Part shown: one piece after another, positions 10,808-64,000 of the stretch | How the letters are laid out: every line of letters begins with the position of its first letter | Numbering within the stretch: the first letter of the stretch is position 1 | NCBI GenBank assembly: GCA_947568835.1 | Contig: OX387603.1 | Coordinates: 11,392,151 to 11,456,150 of the forward strand | Direction of reading: 5' to 3' | DNA length: 64,000 nt | Source: Protonemura montana | Lineage: Eukaryota; Arthropoda; Insecta; Plecoptera; Nemouridae | The notes under the pieces: generated by a model | The model's input: the letters and a program-made list of their open reading frames with translations, nothing else | What the model was told of the DNA's origin: nothing | The model's database searches: none | Program-made: the position numbers and the translations under genes

Positions 10808-13307
10808 TCAACTACGACTATCTTCTTCCTCGCTATCTTCAGTCTCATCGCCCCAACTTGAGTACGAACTATCGTCCGATGACGAGCAACTATCATCTGA
10901 ACATTCTTGAGAGCACGAATGACATTCCTCAGAACTCTCTGTAGAAGAAAATGAAGACTGTCCACTATCACACTCCCCCGAACAAGATTTGGTGCAAGAA
11001 CTTTCATCACTACAAGACGAGTGACGACGCAAGTGAAGAACTCTACCAGAACATTCACTTTCGCTGTCACTTTCTTCCGAAGATGAAGAACACGAGGGCT
11101 TCGACTTTGGCTTGCATTTGCTTCGCGAACGTTCTTCAGACGAAGACTCTTCAGACGTTCCTCTCGATTTGAACCACATTTTCTTAATTAACTGCCCTCT
11201 ACCGGTATCAGTCTCAAAAAGTAGTGGCATAGATGGTCTTAGTGCTGGCCACAAACTCATCAGCGACTCTACAGTAGTTTTATGCAATTTCTTATCTTTA
11301 CGGAACTGTAGCATGGCCGGAATTTCAAAAGGAGTAGTAGTTTCTTCTGAAGAACTACTTGGTTGTATCGGTGGAGTGAACGCTCTCAGAAATTTTGGAT
11401 TGCTCATCGATGGTGTTCCCCCACTGACCGTCGTTGTTTCAGTGCTAGAATCACTCTCGTCCAGACAAGGCCCGCCGGTGCATCTATCGTGCGGAATCAA
11501 ATCTCGTAGCATGTGTCCATGAGGCAAGGTAGTTGTTGAGGTATGTAGCACACCAGGACTACTTAAAGATGGTAGCGTCGATTCGGCAGGCAACACCGTT
11601 GGTGGTATGAATAAAATTTCGTTATCCTCGGGCGAGTCTGTTATATAAGTGATACGGTTGAAATCAAATGTGTGAGGCTTGTCGACGTTTCCACCTGGAT
11701 ACTTGGTGGAGGTGGAAGTCGAGCCTTCTGTGGTTGGGAGGGAATTATGAAGTGACCGTGGTGCCATGGAACAGTCGATGCAAGGTGTGGTTGGGAAATC
11801 ACTCGAATTTGTTGTGGTGCATTTCAAACAGAAAGTAGTTTCAGGCCCATTAGTGCAACCTGGGCAGAGAGTGGTTGAAGATTCAGTCCCATTAGTGCAA
11901 CTTGGACAGACAGTTGTAGGTGACGTGCTAGACGGCATAGGAAATGAAGGAGGTGGTGGGCTGCCTGCAACATTTGATGGTGGTCCCCCCGAGCGTATTG
12001 GTTCGAAACTCGGTGGTAACGTTCCACAAGGACAGTGGCAGACACCGTTTTCTTGAAAAGGAATAGTTGTTGGCACGGAATTTTCTGTCGGTGGAACCCC
12101 TGTTGATGTTTCATAAATAGTGGTTGTGGGCACCGCAGTTTCTGACGGTGGAACCTCTGGTGGTTCGATGCCATGTGTACACTCACACTCGCATTTAGTT
12201 ACCGAATGTGGTGTAACGGTTCCACAAGGGCAGTGGCAGTCGTTACGTGGGTCGACATCCAAAGAAGTGGCAGTGACTATCCGGCTTTCTGTTGGTGGTA
12301 GGGCGGGTGGTATTGTGCCACACGGACATTCGAACCAGTTGTCAGGCGGAGGTGATGACAGATCGATTGGATCAAAGATGAAGGCAAGATTTTTTATAAT
12401 ATTGTTGCCGTGATGGTCGCTTCTGCAATGGTTTTCTAGCGCGAACTTTAACTGTAATGAAGCAACTGCTTTAAGTGCGACCATTGCTTGCTCAATGCGA
12501 TCACTGACGAGCATGTAATCTAACGATGCGAATTCGTTTTCAAATTCTTCGGGCGCTAGAGTTTTATTATTGAGAATGATTTGAGTCAAGTTGGCCGACG
12601 TTATTATCTTCATTGCTTCAGACACTTGGTAATTCAACTCCTCGTTTGTACTGCAGTTAGAAATCGTTTCATTCACATCTTTCGTAAATGTCTCGTCGAA
12701 AACTTTCCATAGCAAGTCTTGAAACGAGTACTTAATAATATAATCGCCCACAGTTTTAACCTCCCGTTTAGCAACTTTTGAATCTGACTTCGCATCTGCC
12801 ACGTGCTTCACAGCATCTTGCAGAATTGTTCGCACTTGGTTATCTATTTTCGTAGCTTTCCCTTCCGCTATGTCCGCCAAAATTAATTGGCCACCCAGCT
12901 GTCGAGTGGCGCTCAAAGCTCTACGTAGCTCCCCTTCGATGCTACGGCCGTTTACACTTAGTCGTATCGGTCCTCCAATGCGTGACTGCAATGGTACGTC
13001 CACTTGCCGGGGCTCGGAAACGGCGTCGTACGAGACTACATTATTACGTTGACCCAGCGCTGGATAGTATGGCAAGACGTTCTGTAGATGGTAGCAGCCT
13101 TTTTTTACGGAATTAGCACGAGCGATATCCTCACTCATCTAAATAAAAACATGAATATAGTAAAAATAAAATCACGATAAAAAAAAAACTTAAATGCAGT
13201 TATATCGAGAATTAAACCCAGTTAGTACAGGTACTTACGGGCTTGCAACACACTAGCGCCATTAACCGAAAAGAGGTAAAAAAGCAAAAAACAGAAAAAT
13301 ACCGCAT
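10808..13307 (-). CDS. Secreted Cys-X-Cys / Pro-Thr-Ser-rich mucin-like protein, two exons
   Basis: Exon 1 is 13307-13239 and exon 2 is 13138-10808; the 100-bp intron has donor GTAAGT right after a CCC codon and acceptor TTTATTTAG, and phase 0 is kept. Exon 1 encodes a hydrophobic 23-residue leader (MRYFSVFCFFTSF...) that fits a signal peptide. Without it, exon 2 alone would start at MSEDIA as a leaderless protein. Numbering from MSEDIA, residues 1-260 look like a folded, partly helical domain with N-glycosylation sequons. Residues 270-460 carry repeated cysteine pairs (CPCGT three times, CECEC, CPSC, CPGC, CLKC, CIDC) in Pro/Thr/Ser-rich spacers. Residues 660-776 are Ser/Glu/Asp/Cys-rich and end in an acidic tail. 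Mature composition suggests an extracellular, glycosylated, metal-binding or disulfide-linked protein. I recognise no family and assign no function. An earlier in-frame ATG at 13403 is possible but would bury the leader. Confidence 0.8.
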
Positions 13308-33270: not shown

Positions 33271-35828
33271 ATGTACCGAAGTGTGTGTTTTAGAAGTTTT
33301 CAGGCATTAGGCTCACTGACATTGTACAAAACCGTCGTAAAAAATCACAGAACAAATTTGAGGTTAGGATGGTCCAAACACATTACATATATCTGTTATC
33401 ACTTATCAGAGTGTGATTGACAAACAATGTTTGCTAATGAATCCTTTGCTTTTTAGATGGCTAGGAGCAGTTGCTGTAAGCTCTGGACTAGCAGTATACA
33501 GTGCATTGAACAACCAAGCGGAAATGGCAAAAGCGGCAATCGATGTTACAAACTTCATGGCAGTACCCATAACTAATGTGAAAACACTGACTGAGAGACA
33601 AAATGACATGAAAACTAAAATGGAGTTGATGATAATGAAAATTCAGTATGATTTTTGCAAAGCTTTAGAAGGAGAGGAAGACAAAGAGATTAAGTTTCTT
33701 GTGGATCGGTGGGAGAGAAAGGAGGGTGGCGGTGGAATTACATGTGTACTGCAGGACGGCAGAGTCTTTGAAAAAGCCGGCGTCAATATTTCTGTTGTGT
33801 CAGGAGTGCTACCTCCAGGGGCTGTTGAGCAGATGAGAGCAAGGTGATAAAACAACTTCTAATTTTGCTTTACAATAACCATTAAAGATAAATTTGTTCA
33901 TTATTATTTATTGTAAACATATAAACCATCTTAATTATGCAAAAATAACGATAATGCAAGATGCACATAGAATACTAAATACAGTACTTAATGAACTTAA
34001 TTTTACTTTTCAGGGGGAAAGTTTTGAGTAAAGGAGAGCTTCCTTTTTTTGCTACTGGTGTCAGTGCTGTTATTCATCCTAGAAATCCCATGATACCTAC
34101 AATCCATTTCAACTATCGATATTTTGAAGTTCAAGAACCTAGTGGTGAAACTCAATGGTGGTTCGGTGGCGGAACTGACTTGACTCCATATTACCTTAAT
34201 GAAGATGATGCTAAGCATTTTCATCGTACACTCCAAAGTGCTTGCAATGTACATGACAAAGAGCACTACCCTAAGTTCAAGACTTGGTGCGACAACTACT
34301 TCCACATAAAGCACAGAGAGGAGAGAAGAGGAGTTGGGGGAATATTCTTTGACGATCTTGACACTCCAAATCAAGAATCATGTTTCAAATTTGTGAAGTC
34401 ATGTGCTGAGGCTGTTATTCCTTCATATCTACCACTGGGTAAGTTTGATTCTTATCACGAGTCTAACTGAAGTGAAGTTGTGGAACTAACTTTAATTCCT
34501 CCAACCAATCTCCCAAACCAAACTGGTCGAGGTGAGGGTCTCGAGATATTCTTGTTTTGTTAATCACTCGTTATAGACTGACGTTTCTGTCCTGCAAGAT
34601 ATTTTGCAAAATTGGTATAAACCTAAAATGAACCATCCTACAACAAGGCCGTAGGAACTTTCATGTTGTGGTCGAATCTTTTTGATATTCTCTGCTTGAT
34701 CTGATGTATCACAGAAAGGTTCTTTATTTGCAAACAAGGTATATTGGTCTACCTAAAATGATCTGCTATTGCTAATTTTCCTGTAGTTGAATTGTTGACG
34801 CAATCAATCGGAGTTGCTCGACTCCTAGAGGATGAAGGTAGAAATTTCACAGTGGGTGAACTAACAGATCAGAACCCACCAGCTAGCATCTTGACGTCAA
34901 TAACGGGCTAAATGAATGGGTCACAGTCACAACTCACAGTCAGCACTCTGCAATGTAGCATCACATTGAATTTAGAATGATTTAAGCTAGAGGTATTTTA
35001 AAAATTAGTAAGTAGATACCATTTAAAAATGTTACTTTAATTTAAAAATGACTCGTACTACTTTCAAGGCAGGTTAATTTGTACAAACTTTAATTGCACC
35101 ATAATTCTCATTTCCAAATAGTATTCAAAGAGTCAATTTGGCACTATTTCATTTTCGTTGGAAGCTGCTGTGATGTCCCATCGACATCGCACTGAAAATA
35201 CAAGCTCCGTTGGGCAAATATTTCTTCTTGGAATCGTTTTAAGCATTTGCGTCATTGCTGTCAACTTTAAAAAATATATGGGCTCAGTATTCTAAAGGGT
35301 GGGGAGTTCAATTTCAGCCTATGGGCCCTCAAGGTATAAACTAATCATCACACATGTATTACTCAAATTAATTTACAGTGAAGAAGCACAAAGATGACGC
35401 CTACGGCTACGCTGAAAGGCAGTGGCAGTTGCTACGCAGAGGGCGCTACGTGGAGTTTAACTTGATTTACGACCGAGGCACGAAATTTGGGCTTTACACT
35501 CCAGGCGCAAGATACGAGAGTATTCTTATGTCTCTTCCTCTGCATGCAGTAAGTGTAAATTTACAATTTTGTTTTAAATGGGGTTTGTCATCAACAACAG
35601 CCTTGGTCAATGAAAATAAACAATCTATCGTAAAAGAATATCACCAAATGTCACGTTATTTATATTAACATAATTCACTGTAATTCTCGTAACACACTCA
35701 AAGGTATAACATTTGATTTCCCTTTACAGAAGTGGGAGTACATGCACAATCCGGAGCCAGGGACAAAGGAAGGAGAGCTTATTGAAGTTCTAAAAAACCC
35801 TCGGGATTGGTTGGGGACTCAACAATAA
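33271..35828 (+). CDS. CPOX: Coproporphyrinogen-III oxidase, mitochondrial, five exons
   Basis: Catalyses the oxygen-dependent oxidative decarboxylation of coproporphyrinogen III to protoporphyrinogen IX, the sixth heme-synthesis enzyme, in the mitochondrial intermembrane space. Exons are 33271-33362, 33457-33843, 34014-34438, 35379-35548 and 35730-35828; phases join exactly and give 390 aa. Exon 1 supplies a basic, acid-free start ([10 protein letters not shown]...) fitting a mitochondrial presequence. Residues 32-48 are a hydrophobic segment. The catalytic domain follows, with [14 protein letters not shown] at about 208-221, [17 protein letters not shown] at about 260-276, [10 protein letters not shown] and the C-terminal NPRDW. 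All are family signatures and no key block is missing. Exon 1 rests on the weak donor GTTAGG, chosen because it restores phase and sequence. The gene has an AATAAA at 35851 and is followed in the same direction by the FANCG-like gene. Confidence 0.95.
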
Positions 35829-38705: not shown

Positions 38706-41304
38706 TTACCCAGCCCCTTTCAAAAACTGTAGAGCTAACTCTTCATCTTCCAGAAGGGAAAGTCCAGTGTCCATAGGTTGTCCTTCCTCGCGAGATCGTT
38801 TATCCCTTATAAGCTCGCCATTGTTCTTTGATTTCCTCTTCAAGGTTGCAGGTCTATGAACTTCTTCCTCCTCTTCATCTTCAGATTGCTTATAGAATTC
38901 CTTAGAATCATTATCTTTCTCTCCGTATACAGCATTTGGATCCGGCAGCCACGACATATCAGGGCCACTGTCGCTCTCTTCACCGCTTTCCTCGTACTCC
39001 TCGTCGGTTTCTCTTATTTCCTCGTCAATGGGTTGAACTTCATCACCTGCAGCCTCTGCCTTCTTGGCTAATTTCGCTTTCTTTTTTTGCTCTCTTCGCT
39101 TCGCTTTGTGTAGCTCACGGAAACGTTCCTTATCGGCTTTGTCTTCTTCAACCATTGCGAGTCTGGCCTTTTCGACATCTATGCCGCCAAAGGTCTCTGC
39201 GTCATATTCCACCCCCACCTTGGACACCTTTTCTTTTTTAGGATTAGCAATAACTGTACCTTCATCGTTAAATAATATTTTAGTATTTACTACAATTTTC
39301 TTCTTTAAAATTTTCTTAGCAGCAGCAACTTTGGTTAGTGCCTTTTTCTTGGCTTGTTTTCGTTCCTCTATTGTTTCCATTTCTGAATCTTCTTCTTCTA
39401 AATTGTGATCAATTCTTTTCACTTTGAATATCTCACCCTCGCTGTCATTGTCACTGTCAGCTGAATCACAATGGAAAGGTTGCTTAGTCTCAAGCTCTTC
39501 TGGATTGTTTGTTTCTGATTCCTCTTTATCATCATCCTCGTCATCTTCGCCATTTCCTTCATTGTAGTCCTGGTCTTCATCAAAATCGTCATCTTCACTG
39601 GATTCTTCACCAACCTCTTTCTTTGTTGATTTTAGTGCTTCAATAAGTTTTTCTCTTTCTTCCCTTTTTGTCATCTTTTTTTCTTTGACCTCATTTTGTT
39701 CTTCTTCTTTCTTGTGGACTTTCTGTAAAAACCTGATCCTTGGTGGGACAACCATGCCCAGTGAAGCAGAATAAGCTTGTGTATTCAAGGCATGCACGTT
39801 AAATATCTTTTTATTCTTCATCAAGAATACAGACTTTACGTATGCTACAAAGGCACGCTGGGCAGCTTCTTTAAGCGCTACATTTTGTGCCAAAAGAGAT
39901 TCTATTCTCCGGATTGGCGTCAGTAATTTTTGGGGGTTGATATTTATCTTAGTTATTGGTACTTTCTTTGCTTGCAACTCTTCTATCATTCCAGCCTCTT
40001 CTGATGGTAAGAGAATCAACAGTGATTCTCCTCCCTTTTTAAATCTTGCGGTGCGACCTGATCTGTGAATATATGTGTTCACATCTTCAGGACAATCATA
40101 GTGAACTACCCAGTCTACAGCTGGGAAGTCCAGCCCCCGAGCAGCTACATCAGTGGCAAACAGGACAGAATTGGACTTAGCACAGAAAGCCTCATAGACA
40201 GCCATTCTTCGCAATTGATGTAAAGATCCCTGAAGCTGTAGAATACTGGGCCCAAGACGTAACCGACAGAATAAATCATTGTGAAATTTTACTTGCTTAC
40301 AGCTCGACATGAAAACAAGGATTTTCTGCCTTAAGTGGCTTTTAATGAATGAAAACAAGGTCTTAAATTTATCCTCAAGTTCACAAACAATATAACTCTG
40401 CTGCAGTGCGTCTGGAGTTGAAGTTTCATGTACAGCAACGTACATAGGGTCTTTCAGACTAAGTCTTGCCAAATCTCGAACCGATTTTGTCTGTGTAGCC
40501 GAAAATAGAAGTGTCTGCCTCTGAGCTGGAAGATTTTCGATGATGGCATTCATTGCATTTTCAAACCCCATGTCCAAACACCTATCTGCTTCGTCCAGCA
40601 CTAGTATTTGTAAGTTGTTACAATCGAACAAGGGATTTTCGTCCATGTGTTGCAACAGACGACCAGGAGTACAAATTATAATGTTACATTTGTCCACACG
40701 TTTTTTCTCGAATTGCAAATCTTTGCCACCAATAATAAGGCCAGCTGAAAGATCATGGTGAACGCCTACCTTGCGAAGCGTTCCAAATATTTGGTACGCT
40801 AGTTCTCGTGTCGGAGTGATTACAAGAGCTCCTAGTCCATCTAGCCGAGACCATTGAAGACAAAACAACTTCTCAATAATTGGGATAAGGAATGCTAATG
40901 TTTTACCACTCCCAGTCCTTGCAGCTCCAAGAACATCCTGCCCTGCAAGGCTCAGAGCAATTGTTTCACGTTGAATTTCTGTTGGCGTCAGGTAACCACA
41001 TTCTTTCAAACCAAGTAGAGTTTTTGGTGACAGCGGTATGTTGTCGAACGTTGCAATTGACGCAACATCAATCTAAGGTAAAAGAGAGTTTGGTTAATGT
41101 TTGTGTTGTTGAGGTTATGTAAGCCCAAAACACTTTTAATATCGCCTAATAATAGCTTACCGTTGAATAATCCTCTTGCAATTTCTTAATTGTGGCTATT
41201 TCAGTAGCATTCGCATTTTTCTTCGGATGGTAATTTAGTTTTTTACCGTACGATTTTTTGTTTTTTGTTTTGCTCGCTCCACGAGGTGCACTTTCGTCCC
41301 CCAT
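38706..41304 (-). CDS. DDX10: ATP-dependent RNA helicase DDX10 (Dbp4), two exons
   Basis: DEAD-box helicase for 18S rRNA maturation and small-subunit assembly in the nucleolus. Exon 1 is 41304-41161 (starting MGDESAPRG, donor GTAAGC) and exon 2 is 41072-38706; the 88-bp intron is phase 0 and the product is 836 aa (human 875). Motifs in order: Q motif LTPTEIQ (76-82), I ARTGSGKT (99-106), Ia PTRELA, GG, Ib TPGR, II DEAD (208-211), III SAT (239-241), V ATDVAARGLD (354-363), VI HRSGRTAR (384-391). A long acidic and lysine-rich tail carries stretches found in DDX10, and the C terminus LSLLEDEELALQFL matches the family's LSLAEDEELVL ending. LGGKDL-type spacing and LLQHMDE after TPGR separate it from DDX27 and DDX18. 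It diverges from WDTC1 across a 400-bp gap. Confidence 0.96.
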
Positions 41305-53144: not shown

Positions 53145-55099
53145 ATGATGATGGTAAGTGGCTGCTCTCGTGCCAAACACGGGGTTCTTTGAGTTTGCAC
53201 GGAATTTAGATTTAATTCGGGAGCGACTTATGACGGTCCATCGAAGATGTTGCTTCGGCACAAGACGTTTGGAAATTAAAGGAGTGATTGTCTATTTATG
53301 TTATTGTCCGGAAGCGTAGGAAGGTAACATCATTTTTATTTCTAAATGTGAAATTCGTACGGAAATTGAACGAGCTTTAAAGTTGACGATAGTTTTTAAT
53401 GGAATTGTTTTCAAATAGATGTAACAGTGCACAAATTTAAAATGTATTAACGCAGTTATTCGTTTCTTACAATTTCATCGCAATTATCCATGTTTGAAAA
53501 GAATACAATTACCTGAAAAGTAAGGTGCAATTTCTACTCAAGCTGCTTGCACCTACCTTACAGTCGGTCGAATTGGAATCGATGTTAATCAAGTTACATA
53601 AGTAAATGGCGTGATGCAAATCTGTTGTTTTAAATTGCTTATTGTGTAATTAGTTGAGCTGTAGCTTTATCACGCGTTGCTGACTGTTACAATACTTTTT
53701 ATTTTGAATCGAGCGTTACGACATTTCAAGTTCTAGATCATTGATATTAGGGTAAGATCAATCTTATCCTACTCGAATCGTTCAGACCACGACTGCCACG
53801 ACTTTCGATAGATGCACGTGTTTAAATGTGAACGAATCTAAGCCCATTTGTAAAATCGTAACCTTTTACAGAACCATGTATTCTTTCTGCAACACTGCTC
53901 TCTATCAGGTATTGGATGTGGGACCATGACCAGTTCTATTGGGAGAGAGGTTGGAGGGATGAAAGTTAGTACAGCAACTTCATTCGCCTTGCTTATCAAC
54001 CTCTCGTCAGCGTGGATTTGTTGTAGTAGTCCTGTCTTGTCGAAAATGAACGTCATTCGGACGTTCTCTTCGCTCTCCACATGTCAGCACCAGGTTTCCT
54101 CACCTCATTCCTCGCCAAGAGACCAGTGCCTCAGGATCCGTTGTCAACAGTGCGTCGCTAAACACCACTAATCAATCACATTCCATGAAACCAACCAACG
54201 GAAGGCCGTAAAAGACATCAATAACAATCATGGCTTACAGTGCCACTGTCATTAGATTTACTTCTTGCAACGAAAAAAACAAAGCGAAAATAAATGTTGC
54301 ATGTCATGGGAAAAGATTTTGTTCTTGTATTCTTGAGTTTTGCTTGAGTTTTGTTTTGCTTGAACAGACAGCCCCGAAATATAAAGATCTGTTCTCGCCA
54401 ATCTCCAAGGACAGTAATTGTAACATTGTCTGCACACACTTCCTAAAATGGCAGCGTATTACCATTTATAGGCGAATATATCCAAGCATCTTGACTCAAG
54501 CGCGAATTAAAAATGCAGTTCACTAATTTCCGGTACTTTTATTTCAGAGTTGCCCTTCTGTGCTTCTTCTTTGCTCGGCGCTAGCATTGATGGTGACATC
54601 GCCGGCGTCGTCGGCGTCGTTACCGACGCATCGCAAAGACGCCAACAAGCAAGGCGACGCATTTTGGTTGAATTCATTTAATGTCTATCAAAAATCACCA
54701 CGGAAATCTGGTTTCTCAAAAACGAATTCATTCACTGAGCTCTCAGAGTCCGTTGATAGATCTCTGTCGGAAGATGAAGAGATTTCCACAAAAACTTACA
54801 TAGACGCCTCTGTTTTTCGTAAACAACCAGACAAAGAAGCCGTTGATGAAACCTACGCGACTGAAACTGAGGTCGAAGCGACGACCTCTTCGGAAATGTC
54901 CGCCATCATGACGGAAGAAGTTCAAATGACTGACGGCATGCATGCATTGCCTGTGATCAATCCGCCGATATGGGTGCAAGAAACTGTACCAGACAACGTA
55001 TTTGATCCGATTCGGAACAACGAGCAGTTTGATACATACGACAGATACTCCCATTCTATCGGACACGGCGGTTTTCGAATGAGAACTCAAATATTTTGA
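53145..55099 (+). CDS. Orphan secreted protein, cysteine-free, two exons
   Basis: Exon 1 coding part is only ATGATGATG (53145-53153), followed by a consensus GTAAGTG donor. Exon 2 is 54548-55099, after the acceptor TTTATTTCAG. Phase 0 joins give 186 aa. The start was chosen because exon 2 alone has a hydrophobic leader (SCPSVLLLCSALALMV) but no ATG at its front; the three Met codons complete a classical signal peptide ending near SPASSA|SLPT. The mature part, about 160 aa, has no cysteine. It is Ser/Glu/Thr-rich in the middle, has basic pairs (HRK, PRKS, FRKQ) that could be processing sites, and ends in an aromatic, Pro/Asn-rich segment (NPPIWVQETVPDNVF ... GHGGFRMRTQIF). No amidation Gly follows a dibasic pair. 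A CRE lies upstream and AATAAA at 55551. It could be a peptide precursor or an extracellular matrix protein; I recognise no family. Confidence 0.7.
53890..54175 (+). mobile_element. 5S-rRNA-derived SINE, copy 3, inside the secreted-protein intron
   Basis: Begins inside the 5S-like head (AACACTGC ... TATTGGATGTGGGACCATGA), continues with CCAGTTCTATTGGGAGAGAG, GTTGGAGGGATGAAAGTTAG, CATTCGCCTTGCTTATCAAC and CTCTCGTCAGCGTGGATTTG, and ends CAGTGCGTCGCTAAACACCA. Same strand as the host gene. The middle part is shorter than in copy 2. Confidence 0.75.
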
Positions 55100-56642: not shown

Positions 56643-57284
56643 ATGGCTGACTTCAAGATAATTCGAGCCACGATGGCAGACAGACCTCGAGTAGTCAACT
56701 TCTTGCGAAAAGCGTTCTACAAATACGAGCCTCTGAACATTGCGATGGGGCTCACTGACGAACCTAGCGAGGCAGATATCAACCATTCGCTGCAAAGTTT
56801 CCCACAAGGAAACTCGTTGCTGGCAGTAACGAACGAAAACAAGCTCGTAGGCGTCGCCATCAACGGTGAAATCACAGACAATGAAGCAAACGTGAGGCAG
56901 AAGCTATTCGAGGAGTGTGACTGTATAGATTTTGTCGCCTTTTTAAAGTTTTGGGTCCACGTCGAACGTATTGCTAATTTTTGGAAGAATACTGATGAAC
57001 CGAAAGGTTTGGACTTGGAGATTATGGCTGTTGACCCTAATACTAGAGGACAAGGTATTGGAAACGCGTTGATGACAAGGACAAAAGAGTTGGCGAAAGA
57101 GGTTGGTTACAAGGTATTTAGGGTTGATTGTTCCAGCTACTATGCCGGGAAGTTGGCAGAGTCGCAAGGTATGAGATGTGTTTTTGAAATGAATTATGAT
57201 GATTATAAAGATGAAAATGGTGAAATCATATTCAAGATTCCTCCTCCACACAAGTCTTTAAGAATATTTTTGCAAACGTTGTAG
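56643..57284 (+). CDS. Arylalkylamine N-acetyltransferase-like (GNAT), copy 1
   Basis: Transfers acetyl from acetyl-CoA to a small amine; insect relatives acetylate dopamine, octopamine, serotonin and others in cuticle tanning and amine inactivation. Intronless, 213 aa. The insect AANAT fold is visible: FKIIRATMADRPRVV at the start, then the EPLN motif (E29-N32) carrying the usual catalytic Glu. SLLAVTNENKLVGVAINGEI at 58-77 forms the central strands, and acetyl-CoA-binding motif A is VDPNTRGQGIG (130-140, with R135). CSSYYAGKLAESQGM follows at 163-177. In many insect AANATs the last position of CSSYYA is Ser; here it is Ala. The start at 56643 was chosen over upstream in-frame ATGs (56505, 56577) because the family begins here, both paralogues align from this Met, and a TTTCAG acceptor-like site precedes it. 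Substrate unknown. Confidence 0.9.
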   Translation: MADFKIIRATMADRPRVVNFLRKAFYKYEPLNIAMGLTDEPSEADINHSLQSFPQGNSLLAVTNENKLVGVAINGEITDNEANVRQKLFEECDCIDFVAFLKFWVHVERIANFWKNTDEPKGLDLEIMAVDPNTRGQGIGNALMTRTKELAKEVGYKVFRVDCSSYYAGKLAESQGMRCVFEMNYDDYKDENGEIIFKIPPPHKSLRIFLQTL

Positions 57285-57313
57285 CCATACGTGGTTTATT
57301 TACTTGTCATAAA

Positions 57314-57323
57314 AATAAATAAA
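57314..57323 (+). terminator. Poly(A) signals of AANAT copy 1
   Basis: Two overlapping AATAAA motifs (AATAAATAAA) about 30 bp after the stop codon. Confidence 0.65.
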
Positions 57324-58101
57324 AAAAACTCTCAAGCACTTATGAAAATTTTATAGATTTATTTCATCAGTCAACATACGTTGCATTGCTGTGAAGTTTC
57401 AGTTGCATGAAGTTGCATGCTGTGTTAATGAGTGACGGAAAAAATCATAATAACATTGAAGTTCTTACAACTACGATCCATCGAAAAAAAGAAACGATTT
57501 TGTGCTAACTGCACTGGTTAATGGTAAACATACACAGTTCAGATGTTGTCATTGGAAACTCCAGATATAAATCTAACAAACAATGTGTTTTTTTTTTTTG
57601 TAATTTGCAGAATAAAAATAAATTAATGAATGAACTGACCTCTGACAATTAATTATTTTCTAGAACAAAACTGCGTTTGGGATTGTCGAGTTATCAGTGA
57701 GCCGTTCAGTTCGTCAAATTATATGCAGCAAAGACAGTTTCTAGAGACGAAGATACTTGTTGAGCACTCACAAAACATTCCCCTGTATCTGCCATGTATC
57801 TGTATTTCGGCCGCGTATCACAGGTATAAACAATGTGTTAGTTTTTAATAAGAATTTTGAAGATACCTTTTTCTCCTACCTCTGAAACAATAGTTCAGAA
57901 ATTCAGGAGTGTTTTTAAACACCTAGGTTGTATGACCAAAGTTAAGCAGTAATTAGTCAATTACTTGAATGCCCACAATACATTATCAGGTTGATAACAG
58001 TAACCACAAGACAAAAAAAAACTGCACTCAGACTCTCTATCAATGTAGTGAGTTATAATACATCACAAATCAATGATTAAACGAAGGAGGAAGCGGTTCC
58101 G
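57324..58101. other. Spacer between AANAT copy 1 and the antisense ORFs
   Basis: AT-rich, no gene recognised; includes a run of 12 T. Confidence 0.5.
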
Positions 58102-58284
58102 TTACTCGAAGTGGTTCAGGGATGTGTTGCTATCAGGTTGGTACACAATTCTAGAATCATTATTCACGTTGTTATCATATCGCGGGTAAATAAATGTCAA
58201 TGAAGGTGGTAAATCAACAAATAAGCGCTTCAAAGGCAATTGAATATCTTTCAAGTTGCTGACTTGAGAAAGAGATAGTACCAT
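58102..58284 (-). pseudogene. Diverged relative of the secreted ORF at 58.75 kb
   Basis: A 60-codon minus-strand frame whose core (LFVDLPPSLTFIYPRYDNN) parallels MRFIVPPTLIYPNSNP of the neighbouring secreted ORF, with similar S-Q-(V/L)-S-N stretches before it. It has no signal peptide of its own. A CTTCAG acceptor-like site lies just upstream on the minus strand, so it may be the last exon of a gene whose leader exon I cannot place, or a decayed copy. Confidence 0.35.
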
Positions 58285-58650
58285 TTTTAGGGTTGGCTGA
58301 AGTCACATGTTTAAATGATAAACCAGGATTTTAGAAGCATGATGTTCTCTGCGTCAACACATAATAAAGAAGTTGACATTTCAATATAAAAGCGAAGTTT
58401 TTTTTAAACTTGAGTTCTTAGTGTGTAATATGTGTTCAAAATTGAAAGCGGGGTACATGCGGGTGAAAGTGTTTTGTGCGACATGACTGCGTAAGCAAAA
58501 ACTATATTTTTCCACTATTTTCAGCGTCTGAGGCCTGGGCATTCAAGAATTCCGCATGGGACCAGAAATCGCAGGACTACGCCAGGAAAATGGAAGTATT
58601 AACCATATCTGTATAGTTGTGGATCACTGAATTGGTGGGAATGTGGGTTA

Positions 58651-58668
58651 GGGGGGGGGGGGGGGGGG
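58651..58668 (+). repeat. Run of 18 guanines
   Basis: Preceded by GTGGGTTA, so the local sequence is GGGTTA followed by the G run. Quadruplex-prone. The layout resembles the minus strand of the 21142 C run. Confidence 0.95.
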
Positions 58669-58745
58669 AAGGAAGGACGCGTGGACTTTCCCCCATATCT
58701 GAGACTAATTGGAAATGAAAAGGACTTCGCTCGCAATAAAACACA

Positions 58746-59057
58746 CTAGTAAATTTTTTGGGAGTTTTTTTCCGGGTTTATTTCTGGATTTTCTGGGATA
58801 GCACCCAAAAAAGAAAAATTGGCTGGGTTGCTGTTGGGATATATTAAAGTAGGAGGTACTATGAATCTCATTTTCACGTTATTTGAAAGTTGTGATTGGA
58901 TGATGGAGGGCAAGGCATTGGCGTACAGCTTTTCTGGAATGTTGAAAGGAAGCCAAGTACTTCTCGTTACTTCGGGTTTTTTCCTCTGATTATTTGCTTT
59001 ACTATCAAGTGCATGCATGAAAATTAACGCGGTAATTAGCAGGTATAATTGCGGCAT
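58746..59057 (-). CDS. Small orphan secreted protein, antisense within the AANAT array
   Basis: Single frame of 103 aa with a good signal peptide (MPQLYLLITALIFMHALDSK) and predicted cleavage near SKA|NN. The mature part of about 80 aa is cysteine-free, begins basic (NNQRKKPEVTR) and is rich in Pro, Asn and Ile, with VPPTLIYPNSNPANFSF and a C-terminal PENPEINPEKNSQ stretch. The minus strand carries TTTTATAAGC about 80 bp upstream of the ATG, a possible TATA box. A diverged relative lies 460 bp further on the same strand. No family is recognised. It lies between AANAT copies 1 and 2 on the opposite strand. The main doubts are the short length and the lack of a clear poly(A) signal. Confidence 0.5.
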   Translation of the reverse strand: MPQLYLLITALIFMHALDSKANNQRKKPEVTRSTWLPFNIPEKLYANALPSIIQSQLSNNVKMRFIVPPTLIYPNSNPANFSFLGAIPENPEINPEKNSQKIY

Positions 59058-59322
59058 TTAAATGATATAACGAGTCAACCATAGTTATTAGAAATGCATT
59101 TGTATCTAGGTGAGGGTGTTGAGTAATTAAGCAAAGCTTATAAAATCCGACTTCCGTTCAATGTTGACTAGCTACAATAGTCTTCATTTAACATTGAACG
59201 GTCATCGAATTTCTCCCACACGTGTAAGTTTAATTAAAGGAAGGGTGCAAGTTATGATATTTTGCAATGGCGAAGTGGTTTAAAGCCGCGATATAATGTG
59301 TATTTATTTGACGGGTTTGCTT

Positions 59323-59460
59323 TGTTTTGATTTACTTTTGGTCCTAAAAAGTTCTTGGGTCGACTTTTAGTCGACTTAGTCGTCAACTTTAGGACTGGAA
59401 ATCTCGGCGAGGACGCCAACGAAACGTCGACCCAGGTAGAACCAAAAGTAAATCAAAACA
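59323..59460. repeat. 138-bp fold-back element
   Basis: The 20-bp ends (59323-59342 and 59441-59460) are exact reverse complements. Inside, TGGGTCGAC (59356-59364) pairs with GTCGACCCA (59426-59434), and GTCCTAAA (59341-59348) with TTTAGGAC (59389-59396). A small stem GGCG-AGGA-CGCC is followed by AACGAAACGTCG. Non-coding, likely a small non-autonomous element. Confidence 0.8.
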
Positions 59461-59850
59461 GAGAAAAACCGTCAACTATATCACAATAATAACGTTTTGT
59501 TATATTGCATTTAAATTGCAAATTCTTGCTACGAGCAGAGTTTTTAATTATATAAGGACCATTCAACTTCTAATAATTTGATGCCCAATCGGGAACTGAA
59601 AGCCATAGCCATTCCCATATCTACCTCTATATGGCGTGAGTTCAAGAGATCGAACATTAAATACGATTGTTGTGGGTTCGAGTCCCTGGAAAGGCACTGA
59701 TTTTGGATAAGTTATGAGTGCTCTTATATTACTATGTTTTTTTTTTTACTTTATCATCTTCTATTATGAAATACAACTATTAGCATCGAGTATACAATTC
59801 TCATGCTAAAATATTTGTATAGTTTTAATGTTAATGTTTTTTTTTGAGAG

Positions 59851-59979
59851 ATTTTAGTTCTGAAAGAACTTTCCCCCACATTTTGGCAGAGTTCGCTTCG
59901 CCATCTCCAGGCTGAGACTAGGTGATGGCAGAGCAAACTCTTTCGAAACATCGGGCGAAGTCCTTTTTAGGACTAAAAA
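59851..59979. repeat. Related hairpin repeat with CGAAACATCG
   Basis: Ends TTTTAGTTCT and AGGACTAAAA are near inverted. CTTCGCC (59896-59902) pairs with GGCGAAG (59954-59960), and an AGAG-CAAA-CTCT stem (59930-59941) directly precedes TTCGAAACATCG. The architecture matches the units at 2.06-2.34 kb and 59.32-59.46 kb. Confidence 0.55.
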
Positions 59980-60159
59980 CCCCTCCAAAAAGAGTTTGAA
60001 CGGTAAAACTACAAAGAGCATGTACCAATGACTCTCAAAACCTAAATAAAATAAAAATATTTTTGCTTACAAAAAGGGAAATAAACTATTGCCCGGTAAC
60101 CAATGGTTGGTATGATTACGTTTTCAGACAGCAGCTATAATTTATACCATTCAATTAAG

Positions 60160-60801
60160 ATGGCTGGGTTCAGGATCATACGCGCCACTATGGCAGACAG
60201 GCCTCGAGTGGTGGACTTCCTGAAAGAGGCGTTTTTTAAGGACAGGGTCTTGAACATCTCGTTGGGGATGGTTGGCGAGCCAAGCGAAGAAGAGATCAAC
60301 CATTCGTTACAAAGTTTCCCACAAGGAAACTCGTTGCTAGCAGTGACAAACGAAAACAAGCTCGTGGGCGTCGTCATCAACGGTGAAATCACAGAAAATG
60401 AAGTGAACGTGAGACAGAAAATGCTCGATGAATGCAAATGTAAAGATTTTGGCGTGTTATTGAAGTTTTGGGTCGACGTAGAAAGTTTAGCGAATTTCTG
60501 GAAGAATACTGACGAAACAAAAGCTTACGACATTAAGCTTGTGGCTGTCGATTTTCATGCTAGAGGTCAAGGAATTGCAAATTTGTTGTTTTTGAGATCA
60601 AAAGAGTTGGGTAAAGAGGCAGGTTACAAGATTTGCAGGGCTGATTGCTCCAGTTACTACGCCGGGAAGTTGGCACTGTTGCAGGGTATGACCTGTGTGT
60701 ATGAAATGAGGTACGAAGATTACAAAGATAAGAATGGCGATGTTGTTTTCAAAGTACCAACCCCACATGATGCTTTTAGAATATTCAAGGAAAATTTGTG
60801 A
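60160..60801 (+). CDS. AANAT-like acetyltransferase, copy 2, lacking the motif Glu
   Basis: Intronless, 213 aa, aligning with copy 1 without a gap. Acetyl-CoA motif A is intact (VDFHARGQGIA, R135), and CSSYYAGKLALLQGM is kept. At the position of the catalytic EPLN motif, copy 1 has KYEPLN and copy 2 has KDRVLN: Glu29 is Arg and Pro30 is Val. Since that Glu is the general base in characterised insect AANATs (Drosophila Dat Glu47), copy 2 may bind acetyl-CoA but be weakly active, use another base, or act as a binding protein. The frame is fully open and the rest is conserved, so it is not an obvious pseudogene. Residues about 47-87 are almost identical to copy 1, unlike both ends. The start was chosen by alignment with copy 1. 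Confidence 0.88.
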   Translation: MAGFRIIRATMADRPRVVDFLKEAFFKDRVLNISLGMVGEPSEEEINHSLQSFPQGNSLLAVTNENKLVGVVINGEITENEVNVRQKMLDECKCKDFGVLLKFWVDVESLANFWKNTDETKAYDIKLVAVDFHARGQGIANLLFLRSKELGKEAGYKICRADCSSYYAGKLALLQGMTCVYEMRYEDYKDKNGDVVFKVPTPHDAFRIFKENL

Positions 60802-61434
60802 CTGCAATTTAATATTTATGAATGATTTAATTGATTATCTTGAATTGCCATGTGAATAGCAAATTATTCTACTCTGTATCTTTACGTGTGTGGCACTGTA
60901 GTACAATATAATAGAAGAAGACTTTTTTTAGATTTATTTATGACTTTAGCAACCCAACTTAATTTTGATTAATTGGTAACAACTACCCATGCTTTGCTGA
61001 GAGACCTCATCCGTTCCAGTGCTTGCTTATTCAAGACAGTCTTGACCGTCTTGACAGTATGTGGATTAAGCAAGCTGAACGCCAGATACTAACAAAATAA
61101 ATAGAATATCTCAAGGCAAACGTTCTGAGCTGCCAACCACAATCACATTTATTAATTACGTTCGGTAAGTGAGGTAGTTTCAAAGTATCCTCGGATTAAA
61201 CGACGTCGATGGACGCTGAAGGGACAGTGACGTCGATTTCGATCAACGAAATCACGAGCGGTTCCTGCCAAAAGTTTGAAAATTCGTGTAGGTATTGAAG
61301 TATACCTGAAGTATTGATATGTAAGTGTAGGCGTCGATATGTGATATAATTAGACGAGATGACGGGATTGCTGATATGCCGATGACGAACAGAACCTTCC
61401 AGCCGACAGAGGGGAAACTCGGTGCTGACATTTT
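60802..61434. other. Spacer after AANAT copy 2
   Basis: No gene seen. AATAAA at 61096-61101 is a possible poly(A) site for copy 2. Confidence 0.45.
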
Positions 61435-61557
61435 GAGTTCAGGGCAGTAATCTCACTGAGGAGTAATCTCAACGAGGGTCGAAAAATTTTCAATAAACTG
61501 CCTGTTTTTGTTAAAGCTGCGACACAACGTAACGTCTTTAAAGACAATCTCGATTAA
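61435..61557 (+). mobile_element. C-terminal remnant of a non-LTR retrotransposon (LINE) reverse transcriptase
   Basis: The open frame reads SNLNEGRKIFNKLPVFVKAA then TQRNVFKDNLD and a stop. This is the typical C-terminal pattern of LINE ORF2 proteins (FN.LP..VK....FK..L). No RT or endonuclease domain precedes it, so it is a 5'-truncated relic of about 120 bp. Confidence 0.6.
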
Positions 61558-61782
61558 TTTCTTCTTGATAAATTGTTTTATAATGTTAACGAGTATTTAG
61601 GTAATTAATGTATGTTATGAATTGTTTATCATTAATCTAGCTGAATGAATTAAAATTGTGATAAGGTTAATATTATATTATAGAAATGTGCTAACCAATA
61701 ACATAAATAAAAATAAAATAATGAAATAAATTGAATCTTGTAGAAATGGGTTCTTTTACAGTTCATTAAGCTAAAAATTTGG

Positions 61783-61814
61783 TTATTATTATTATTAGTA
61801 TTATTCTTATTATT
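61783..61814. repeat. Imperfect (ATT)n microsatellite
   Basis: TTATTATTATTATTAGTATT and following TATTCTTATTATT, directly adjacent to SINE copy 4, which suggests it grew from the element's 3' tail. Confidence 0.75.
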
Positions 61815-61815
61815 T

Positions 61816-62125
61816 GTGGTGTTTAGCGACGCACTGTTTTGACATCTGGCCATGCGGCACTGGTCTAATGGCGTCGGTGAATAAGTGGATGATGATGAAC
61901 CTAACCTAGTTTAGAAGGGAGCAGGGGAAACCCGGTGCCGGCACGTAGCCTACTCCTGTCGAAGAGCATCAATGGGAACACCGGCTTAACGTCCCTTCCG
62001 AAGGACGGTACAACCCGAACGGCAGGATTCCTCCACAAATCCATACTATCGAGAGGTTGATAAGCAAGGCGAATGAAGTTGCTGTACTAAATTTCATCCC
62101 TCTAACCTCTCTCCCGAACAGAACT
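61816..62125 (-). mobile_element. 5S-type SINE, copy 4 (headless)
   Basis: On the minus strand: GGGAGAGAGGTTAGAGGGAT, CATTCGCCTTGCTTATCAAC, CTCTCGATAGTATGGATTTG, a CCGTCCTTCGGAAGGGACGT block, TAGGTTAGGTTCATCATCAT and CAGTGCGTCGCTAAACACCA. The 5S head is missing. It ends in the (ATT)n tract. Confidence 0.75.
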
Positions 62126-63467
62126 AAGAATTTGGTAGTTGAACCTTTCAATTTAGTTATTATGTAAAATGTCTGCACCATGCACCGTGTTTTTGTGAGC
62201 AATCTTTTACTTAGGTCCAGTATTACAATTTTCCTAACTCCTAGATAACGTAAGAGTAAAATTAATTACCACGGCAACAACCAATCAAATGCGGTGAAAG
62301 TCAGCTGTTTCTGTGAGTTAGAACCGGGTCTTACGGCGATAGATAGGTTGTTTTAACAAACTTCAATTCTGTAGTTATTGAGAATAGAATTCACTACCTG
62401 ACCCTCGTTGGTCTTACAAGCACTCTGGGGATTTTGAATGAGTTGCATTTTAAATTTTAATCTATTTAAAATTACACGATGTATCATGCGATGAAAATTA
62501 GTAAAAATTAAATGATAATGCAATAGCAATGATATGTGATGATTTATTTTAAAGTACCTAACAGGAATTACCGATACTGATGCTAGGAATGCTTAATTCA
62601 TGCGAATCTCATTTATATTCAATAAAGATTTTCGTTTTCTGCTGATCTGTCTCAGTAATTACTTGTTCTTCAGCGTATAAAGTGGTAGGAATTGGGGGCG
62701 ACATGTAAACAGTCCTCTATAAATAATAAAAAGGATAATAAATCGTTCATATTGGCATGACGGTTGATAACCATTACCAATCAGAAGCGAACACGACAAA
62801 GGTTACAAACAGGTTTATAATTATCACTGAAATTGTCAAGTAATATAGCTTTTGTGGTCAATATATGCTAGGTACTGGTGCACCTCTATAAAGCTAATGA
62901 CTTCACTGTTTCAGTCGAATTTACAAATTTATGAGTAATTTTTGAGTTTATCATTTAATTTTTAGTCTCTATGTAAGTACATCTCAGCCACAATATATAT
63001 ATATAAATATAATATGTTAATAGATATTTGCAAAATCGTACCACAATGATACGATTTGAGTAATTTCTGTCTATCCGCTAATAAAGCAATGCGAAAGACT
63101 TGCGTCATTGAGGTGCAACTTTAAGAAAATAACTTTCAAAAACTAAAGTACCGAACGAATGATAAAAGAATTGGCAATAGTGTAAATAATGAAAAGATGT
63201 GTGGTAAATAATGTAAAACAATGTAATTTCACTTCAGTGTTCATTATTTGATTTTAGTTAGGACATAATTTTTGGAAAAAATAAGCAATTTGAATCAAAT
63301 AAATGCAATTGAGTTAACTCTGGGGCACTGAACTCGTCAAAATGACCATGGCTAACCAATTACCAAGTTCGCAAATAAATTATCTGCTTACTATAAAACG
63401 ATTACAATTATAATTACTTTTACGTGTCCCAACTGAGGCTAAGAAACGACATGCAATGAGTTTCAGG
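62126..63467. other. Intergenic DNA before AANAT copy 3
   Basis: No gene seen; a TATATATATATA run lies near 62994. An upstream ATG-CAA-TGA mini-frame at 63451 precedes the AANAT copy 3 start. Confidence 0.45.
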
Positions 63468-64000
63468 ATGGACGCCTTCAGGATAATTCGCGCCACGATA
63501 TCAGACAGACCTCGCGTCGCCTCTTTCTTGAGAGAGGCGTTTTACAAGCATGAACCATTGTACATCGCCTTGGGCTTGACCGAACCTATCGAGGCAGATA
63601 TCAACCAATATCTGGAAAATTTATCGGAAGGAAAATCGTTGATTGCCCTATCAAGGACAAACAAGGTGTTGGGCGTCGCTATCAACAGTGAAGTAACAAA
63701 ACATGTCCAAGAGAAAAGGCAAGAGTTATTAAATAAATGTGAATGCAAACATTTTGCGAAAATTTTAAAATTTGATCTACATGTTGAGCGTACAGGGAGT
63801 TTCTGGAAGTATATTGATGAACCCAAAGCATTCGATTTGGGGTTGCTGGCCGTTGATCCTAGTTTAACGGGCCAGGGTATAGGGAAGACGTTACTAATGA
63901 AGTCTGAGGTGTTGGCCAAGGAGGTTGGCTACAAGGTTTTTAGGATTGTATGTACAAGTTATTATTCCGCCAAGCTGGCTGAAAGGCAAGGTTTGACATG
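63468..64000 (+). CDS. AANAT-like acetyltransferase, copy 3, cut by the window end
   Basis: An open frame runs from the ATG at 63468 to the edge (177 codons seen, about 36 missing). It starts MDAFRIIRATISDRPRV, aligned to copies 1 and 2 with one residue deleted around position 39. The catalytic Glu is present (KHEPLY, E29). The acetyl-CoA motif A reads VDPSLTGQGIG, so the usual Arg of R-x-x-G-x-G is Thr134. The later CTSYYSAKLAERQG keeps the final Ser found in many insect AANATs, where copies 1 and 2 have Ala. It is the most diverged of the three and has lost the conserved QSFPQGNSLL block (here ENLSEGKSLI). TTTCAG precedes the ATG as in copy 1. The C-terminal end cannot be judged. Confidence 0.85.
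   Translation, partial: MDAFRIIRATISDRPRVASFLREAFYKHEPLYIALGLTEPIEADINQYLENLSEGKSLIALSRTNKVLGVAINSEVTKHVQEKRQELLNKCECKHFAKILKFDLHVERTGSFWKYIDEPKAFDLGLLAVDPSLTGQGIGKTLLMKSEVLAKEVGYKVFRIVCTSYYSAKLAERQGLT

What the first reader, a model, noticed from the sequence alone, without database searches (positions are those of the whole stretch)
56643..64000. AANAT array with complementary losses of active-site residues
Three tandem AANAT-like genes align position by position. Copy 1 has both the EPLN Glu (E29) and motif A Arg (R135). Copy 2 keeps R135 but has R29 in place of the Glu. Copy 3 keeps E29 but has Thr in place of the Arg. Reading frames are otherwise intact and conserved, so these look like retained but altered proteins. 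In insect AANATs the Glu is the general base and the motif A Arg binds the CoA pyrophosphate. One idea is that copies act as amine- or CoA-binding proteins, or work together.
Basis: partly seen in the sequence, partly recalled or inferred. Interest (0 to 1): 0.75.

Follow-up and report, generated by a model that had tools for sequence, protein, structure and literature searches.

The report
Three AANAT genes, one lacking catalytic Glu
Three neighbouring copies of an insect-type amine-acetylating enzyme gene are all intact and look conserved; two are probably working enzymes, while the middle one has lost the key catalytic glutamate and the proline beside it and may do something else, a modest variation on a well-known enzyme family.

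Summary
The sequence observation holds. Three intact AANAT-like frames lie at 56643-57284, 60160-60801 and 63468-64112 (the last 112 bases are outside the window). Copy 2 has Arg for the EPLN Glu; copy 3 has Thr for the motif A Arg. The reading of "complementary losses" does not hold. The motif A Arg equals Arg153 of Drosophila Dat, whose side chain pairs with Asp46 as a CoA-sensing switch; the pyrophosphate is held by main-chain atoms, and R153A raises kcat in Dat, though kcat/Km falls. Copy 3 lacks the Asp partner too and has hydroxyls at both catalytic Ser sites, so it is probably still an enzyme. Copy 1, taken as the intact copy, lacks the Asp and has Ala for Ser186. Copy 2 is the real oddity: its FFKDRVLN differs from Drosophila FFKDEPLN only by EP to RV. 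Branch dN/dS is 0.18-0.29. Best reading: a small tandem expansion of ordinary insect-type AANATs, two probably active, plus one retained paralogue whose canonical catalysis is probably crippled. No activity, expression or orthologue evidence was available.

The parts
56643..57284 (+). Copy 1, intact AANAT-like frame, 213 aa; Y28 E29 P30, R135, S164, A168, H203
56727..56732 (+). Copy 1 codons GAG CCT for E29 P30 (EPLN motif)
57045..57047 (+). Copy 1 codon AGA for motif A R135 (aligns with Arg153 of Drosophila Dat)
60160..60801 (+). Copy 2, intact AANAT-like frame, 213 aa; D28 R29 V30, R135, S164, A168, H203
60241..60249 (+). Copy 2 codons GAC AGG GTC (D28 R29 V30): catalytic Glu and following Pro replaced by Arg-Val; switch Asp present
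60562..60564 (+). Copy 2 motif A R135 codon, retained
63468..64000 (+). Copy 3, AANAT-like frame cut by the window end; complete (214 aa) with 112 further bases in the genome
63549..63557 (+). Copy 3 codons CAT GAA CCA (H28 E29 P30)
63867..63869 (+). Copy 3 codon ACG, Thr at the motif A Arg column

Best explanation
This is a three-gene tandem expansion of insect-type arylalkylamine N-acyltransferases in an arthropod, most likely an insect. Copies 1 and 3 are most likely working acetyl-CoA:amine N-acetyltransferases (inferred): acetyl-CoA lies on the P-loop through backbone contacts, Glu29 and the Ser/Thr of the C-(S/T)-S motif deprotonate the amine, and the D46-R153 switch of Drosophila Dat is not formed because the Asp is missing. 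Copy 2 is the sister of copy 1 and lost the general base and its neighbour (EP to RV) while keeping the P-loop, the switch pair D28-R135, S164 and H203. It most likely still folds and binds (acetyl-)CoA but has little or no canonical amine acetylation, and is kept by purifying selection for an altered role. Shown: sequences, residue states, low dN/dS, family and fold match. Inferred: activity of copies 1 and 3, CoA binding and loss of activity in copy 2, any new role.
For: Family: 11 distinct PDB sequences match copy 1 at E 5e-19 or better, all insect AANATs, six of them versions of one enzyme, Drosophila Dat; the other 19 of the 30 listed are at 3e-4 or weaker. Models of copies 1 and 2 have insect AANATs in ranks 1-20 of Foldseek. 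Residues c1/c2/c3 in Dat numbering: D46 = Y/D/H, E47 = E/R/E, P48 = P/V/P, R153 = R/R/T, S182 = S/S/T, S186 = A/A/S, K192 = S/L/R, H220 = H/H/H. Published mutants: AgmNAT E34A keeps 0.05-0.07% and P35A about 2% of kcat (PMC5647378 passages); Dat R153A has about 5-fold higher kcat (PMC6070697). Selection: free-ratio branch dN/dS c1 0.18, c2 0.29, c3 0.27; w=1 rejected for c2 (2dlnL 12.3), c3 (27.0) and c1 (5.5) over 212 codons. Tree: c1+c2 99/96, plus c3 97/96. Copy 2 is below the Pfam Acetyltransf_1 cut-off (15.8 against 20.7 bits), copies 1 and 3 above it.
Against: Dm-AANATL2 loses little kcat when this Glu is mutated (PMC6070697), so copy 2 may still be an enzyme. The same review gives R138A of AANATL2, the motif A Arg, only about 20% of kcat and a possible direct role, and PMC7427786 calls D46 and R153 conserved in insect AANATs and expects low activity when the bridge is lost; Km for tyramine rises 20-fold in R153A. 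So copies 1 and 3 could be weak. Copy 1 has Ala at the site where AgmNAT S171A keeps about 9% of kcat (site matched by alignment). Without codons 41-80, w=1 on the copy 2 branch is only just rejected (2dlnL 3.94), likewise copy 1 (3.94). Recent relaxation is open: 0.1 neutral substitutions per site leaves no stop in 6.6% of simulations, 0.05 in 26%. No expression, orthologue or assay. The copy 2 model has pLDDT under 50 at 26-38 and 92-118.
Confidence: 0.55

Rival explanations
1. Copy 2 is a still-active N-acyltransferase that uses another base (His203, D28 through water, or solvent hydroxide) or a different acceptor, as reported for Dm-AANATL2.
For: E29A of Dm-AANATL2 loses little kcat; its base is unknown, possibly a His (PMC6070697). 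Copy 2 keeps S164, H203, R135 and D28. dN/dS below 1.
Against: Four of the five enzymes in that review lose almost all activity. Copy 2 also lost the Pro whose mutation costs about 98% of kcat in AgmNAT, has Ala for Ser186, and puts a positive charge where a cationic amine should bind.
Confidence: 0.27
2. Copy 2 is a young pseudogene that has only recently stopped being selected.
For: More unique amino acid changes than copy 1, 25 against 14 (Tajima p=0.08); codon positions 1 and 2 differ (p=0.02, 0.009), position 3 does not (p=0.33). Low Pfam score. Weak rejection of w=1 when codons 41-80 are left out.
Against: Intact frame, branch dN/dS 0.27-0.30, w=1 rejected over all codons; long neutral drift would have left stops. 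Copy 3, not suspected, breaks as many of the in-genome invariant columns as copy 2 (10 of 49 each).
Confidence: 0.13
3. The three copies work together: each lacks a part that another provides.
For: Only the pattern E/R, R/R, E/T.
Against: The residues act within one chain; a homologue is described as a monomer; the copy 3 Thr is not shown to be a catalytic loss; copy 1 itself lacks the D46 and S186 equivalents.
Confidence: 0.03

Closest known systems
Drosophila dopamine N-acetyltransferase (Dat, Dm-AANATA; PDB 3TE4)
   Same: Similar over the length, same fold, EPLN position, P-loop, CSS motif, C-terminal PH; copy 2 shares FFKD and the D46-R153 pair
   Different: Copy 2 has RV for EP; copies 1 and 3 lack the Asp; copy 3 lacks the Arg; copies 1 and 2 lack Ser186
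Aedes aegypti aaNAT2 (PDB 4FD5/4FD6) and Tribolium TcAANAT0 (6V3T)
   Same: aaNAT2 is the best PDB sequence hit for copies 1 and 2 and the top Foldseek hit of both models
   Different: Both keep DEPLN and the P-loop Arg
Drosophila AgmNAT (5K9N)
   Same: EPL motif; Thr/Ser in the CTSxYS motif as in copy 3
   Different: Glu at the Asp46 site and a divergent P-loop (RGRNLG)
Dm-AANATL2 (from review PMC6070697 only)
   Same: Insect AANAT reported not to need this Glu as general base
   Different: It still has the Glu; copy 2 has none. Its sequence was not compared here
Ebony C-terminal condensation domain (6DYM)
   Same: Found by Foldseek with both models (rank 23, rank 22); a related fold with another use
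   Different: Remote: 14% and 11% identity

Membership tests
Insect AANAT (iAANAT), GNAT superfamily | Sequence similarity to solved insect AANATs over most of the length | tested here: met
   Copy 1: 11 sequences at 5e-19 or better; copy 2: 11 at 1e-5 or better. Copy 3 was not searched against the PDB; it is 55% identical to copy 1
Insect AANAT (iAANAT), GNAT superfamily | GNAT fold | tested here: met
   Foldseek TM (query) 0.86 and 0.84 to 4FD6 for the models of copies 1 and 2; models of moderate to low confidence; copy 3 not modelled
Insect AANAT (iAANAT), GNAT superfamily | DEPLN-motif Glu (general base in most tested) | tested here: not met
   Met in copies 1 and 3, not met in copy 2 (R29). 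Copy 2 is filed as a homologue, not as a proven AANAT enzyme
Insect AANAT (iAANAT), GNAT superfamily | P-loop Q/R-x-x-G-x-G/A | tested here: inconclusive
   Copies 1 and 2 fit; copy 3 is T-G-Q-G-I-G, glycines kept, first letter not
Insect AANAT (iAANAT), GNAT superfamily | D46-R153 CoA-sensing switch | tested here: not met
   Complete only in copy 2 of the array; copy 1 Y-R, copy 3 H-T, C4 pair F-R and Y-K; the C4 19.89 Mb row has D-R
Insect AANAT (iAANAT), GNAT superfamily | Acetylates arylalkylamines or polyamines | not testable with these tools
   No assay
Pseudogene | Broken frame or dN/dS near 1 | tested here: not met
   Intact frames; w=1 rejected on each branch over 212 codons, weakly for copies 1 and 2 when codons 41-80 are left out
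Pseudoenzyme | Catalytic residue lost while the gene is conserved | tested here: inconclusive
   Residues lost and dN/dS low for copy 2; inactivity not tested

The most novel reading that the evidence does not exclude
Copy 2 is a dedicated AANAT pseudoenzyme: it keeps the CoA-binding P-loop and, alone in the array, the D-R switch that senses the cofactor, but has swapped the catalytic Glu-Pro for Arg-Val, so that it senses or sequesters (acyl-)CoA or binds a non-cationic ligand instead of acetylating amines. The swap may have come in nearly one step, by a 6-base micro-inversion of GAGCCT and one substitution.
Probability: 0.25. Interest if true: 0.55.

Novelty: new variant of a known kind. Interest (0 to 1): 0.3.

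Why it matters
Insect AANATs inactivate biogenic amines, act in cuticle hardening and pigmentation (PMC4394704 passages) and are discussed as insecticide targets (PMC6070697 and PMC5647378 passages). A retained natural copy with Arg in place of the general base, next to sisters that keep the Glu, would be a natural test of how far the Glu is needed and whether the CoA-sensing switch can be kept without the chemistry. The corrected reading also warns against using the motif A Arg alone as a marker of activity.

Tried and rejected
Further copies beyond the window: none seen (lower bounds). Relatives outside this genome: no confirmed match in bacterial and archaeal genome contigs (222 pattern hits), viral contigs (170 pattern hits) or phages; these collections are not of insect genomes, so this says nothing about insects. 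Gene conversion between copies 1 and 2 (codons 41-80 look more alike): not significant, p=0.19; a short shared run of copies 2 and 3 at codons 194-198 had p=0.0025 over all variable sites but not at third positions (p=0.72), and was not followed. Micro-inversion at codons 29-30: the best inversion signal in the copy 1/copy 2 alignment (5 mismatches direct, 1 after inversion), but 18 of 300 randomised controls reach that gain somewhere, so only suggestive. Structure: two AlphaFold jobs on the same 5-row alignment gave mean pLDDT 74.1 and 69.1; the copy 2 motif region is under 50, so no pocket argument is drawn.

Prior reports: a paper search for the Glu not being conserved in insect AANATs gave one paper, on nematode clock proteins (listing only); a GNAT pseudoenzyme search gave none. 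With the listings (20 of 204 papers shown), this is all that 'no report found' rests on, in open-licence papers only.

Mended after the filing check: the statement that copy 2's 2 of 9 broken columns is more than chance is withdrawn, because Dat and one paralogue also break 2 of 9 and AgmNAT 5 of 12; the AANATL2 R138A result and the kcat/Km fall of R153A were added. Confidence in the best explanation went from 0.60 to 0.55 and the rivals up by 0.01-0.02 for these reasons.
Full report
WHAT IS THERE. The window is G000:C2:11392151-11456150 of a 258 Mb genome in 34 contigs. Three forward-strand frames encode AANAT-like proteins: copy 1 at 56643-57284 (213 aa), copy 2 at 60160-60801 (213 aa) and copy 3 from 63468, cut by the window end. 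Adjoining DNA completes copy 3 at 214 aa, stop ending at window-equivalent 64112. Copies 1 and 2 are 68% identical, copies 1 and 3 55%, copies 2 and 3 50%. tblastn over 112,850 contiguous bases finds no fourth copy. A genome search with copy 1 returned 9 matches: the three copies, a tandem pair on C4 near 10.87 Mb (L017, L018; 36-37%), and 4 partial matches on C4 and C5. The tool calls its counts lower bounds and matches genes exon by exon, so members split by introns may be missed. As far as seen, the array has three members.

FAMILY. Copy 1 hits 11 distinct PDB sequences at 5e-19 or better, all insect AANATs (six are versions of Drosophila Dat), Aedes aaNAT2 first at 1.2e-29; the other 19 of the 30 listed are at 3e-4 or weaker. 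Copy 2 hits 11 at 1e-5 or better, again aaNAT2 first. AlphaFold models of copies 1 and 2 (mean pLDDT 74.1 and 69.1) have insect AANATs in ranks 1-20 of the Foldseek list. Copies 1 and 3 pass the Pfam Acetyltransf_1 cut-off; copy 2 does not (15.8 against 20.7 bits). A tree of 10 sequences groups copies 1 and 2 (99/96) with copy 3 next to them (97/96).

THE RESIDUES. The motif A Arg of copy 1 (R135) aligns with Arg153 of Dat and E29 with Glu47 (Dat numbers are PDB chain position plus 15, set by Glu47). For copies 1/2/3: D46 = Y/D/H; E47 = E/R/E; P48 = P/V/P; R153 = R/R/T; S182 = S/S/T; S186 = A/A/S; K192 = S/L/R; H220 = H/H/H. First, copy 2 reads FFKDRVLN against FFKDEPLN in Dat: only EP has changed to RV, and D28 is the normal Asp46, so no acidic residue has moved into the catalytic place. 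In the 10-row alignment copy 2 is the only row without the Glu or the Pro. Counting columns invariant in the other nine rows, copy 2 breaks 2 of 9 (E29, P30), copy 3 1 of 8 (G75S), copy 1 0 of 7; but Dat also breaks 2 of 9, the C4 19.89 Mb row 2 of 9, aaNAT2 1 of 8 and AgmNAT 5 of 12, so the number is ordinary and the choice of sites is what stands out. Second, the Arg/Thr column is not invariant: paralogue C4a has Lys. Third, within the array the switch pair D46-R153 is complete only in copy 2.

WHAT THE LITERATURE SAYS OF THESE RESIDUES. [quoted passage not shown] D26A of bmAANAT3 drops acceptor affinity about 10-fold (PMC5423648, passages). In Dat, Lys192 makes salt bridges to the CoA phosphates; the authors call D46 and R153 conserved in insect AANATs and expect low activity when the bridge is lost (PMC7427786, passages). 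R153A of Dat has about 5-fold higher kcat, higher Km and 2-5 fold lower kcat/Km; R138A of Dm-AANATL2, the same site, keeps about 20% of kcat (PMC6070697, passages and section 6 part 1). The Glu-to-Ala mutants of Dm-AANATA, AANATL7, AgmNAT and Bm-iAANAT3 are nearly dead, but E29A of Dm-AANATL2 is only slightly affected (same review). In AgmNAT, E34A keeps 0.05-0.07%, P35A about 2% and S171A about 9% of kcat (PMC5647378, passages). The primary papers on Dm-AANATA, AANATL2 and AANATL7 were not seen.

READING. Copy 3's Thr is a poor sign of lost activity: its switch partner is His anyway, it has hydroxyl residues at both S182 and S186, and Arg at K192. The AANATL2 R138A result speaks against being sure of this. 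Copy 1's Arg has no Asp partner, and its S186 site is Ala (compare AgmNAT S171A), so it is not a complete reference copy. Copy 2 has lost the base, the Pro and S186, and puts a positive charge where a cationic amine should bind; it is the copy for which a strong defect is predicted. The symmetry of losses dissolves into one likely real loss and one likely tolerated change.

SELECTION. Pairwise dN/dS (NG86) is 0.22 (1-2), 0.24 (1-3) and 0.18 (2-3); YN00 gives 0.28, 0.30 and 0.31; comparisons of the array with the C4 pair could not be computed because synonymous sites are saturated. A codon model with a free ratio per branch gives 0.18, 0.29 and 0.27 for copies 1, 2 and 3; w=1 is rejected for copy 2 (2dlnL 12.3), copy 3 (27.0) and copy 1 (5.5), and copy 2 does not differ from the rest (0.1). 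Leaving out codons 41-80 gives 3.94 for copy 2 and 3.94 for copy 1, and 26.0 for copy 3. Copy 2 has more unique amino acid changes than copy 1, 25 against 14 (p=0.08), and more at codon positions 1 and 2 (p=0.02, 0.009) but not at position 3 (p=0.33). DNA similarity of copies 1 and 2 covers the coding frame and ends with it; copies 1 and 3 share about 30 further bases upstream. Simulation of stops alone leaves room for about 0.1 neutral substitutions per site. So copy 2 looks constrained for most of its history; very recent decay cannot be ruled out.

HOW THE CHANGE MAY HAVE ARISEN. Codons 29-30 are GAG CCT in copy 1 and AGG GTC in copy 2: five mismatches read directly, one if the six bases are inverted. 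It is the best such signal in that alignment and in the copy 3/copy 2 alignment, but 18 of 300 randomised controls reach it somewhere. Suggestive only.

LIMITS. Start codons are by similarity; copy 1 has in-frame ATGs further upstream.

Noticed in passing
L017 1489-2139 and L018 1483-2136 (C4 near 10.87 Mb): A second tandem AANAT pair in the same genome; L018 has Lys at the motif A Arg column and both have Arg for the next Gly.
   Followed up: partly
L019 358-672 and 1408-1872 (C4 19.89 Mb): A split AANAT-like gene with canonical DEPL and RGMGVG motifs but TA in place of the VD before the P-loop.
   Followed up: partly
window 33368-34470: Two open frames matching coproporphyrinogen III oxidase, likely exons.
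   Followed up: no
window 38706-41072, minus strand: Long open frame of a DEAD-box helicase with SPB4-type C-terminal extension.
   Followed up: no
window 10808-13138, minus strand: 776-aa Ser/Thr/Cys-rich open frame without a Pfam match at E 0.001.
   Followed up: no
window 54560-55099: Open frame with a signal-peptide-like start (by eye) and no Pfam match at E 0.001, upstream of the array.
   Followed up: no
about window 59511-59555, and about 64331-64376 just beyond the window: A 46-base inverted repeat, 80% identical, upstream of copy 2 and downstream of copy 3.
   Followed up: no
G000:C34 and G000:C4 5760925-5762262: C34 (15,885 bases) carries COX1 (Pfam) and, by recall, ND2 and COX2, so looks mitochondrial; C4 holds a COX1 match of equal score, perhaps a recent nuclear insertion of mitochondrial DNA.
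   Followed up: no
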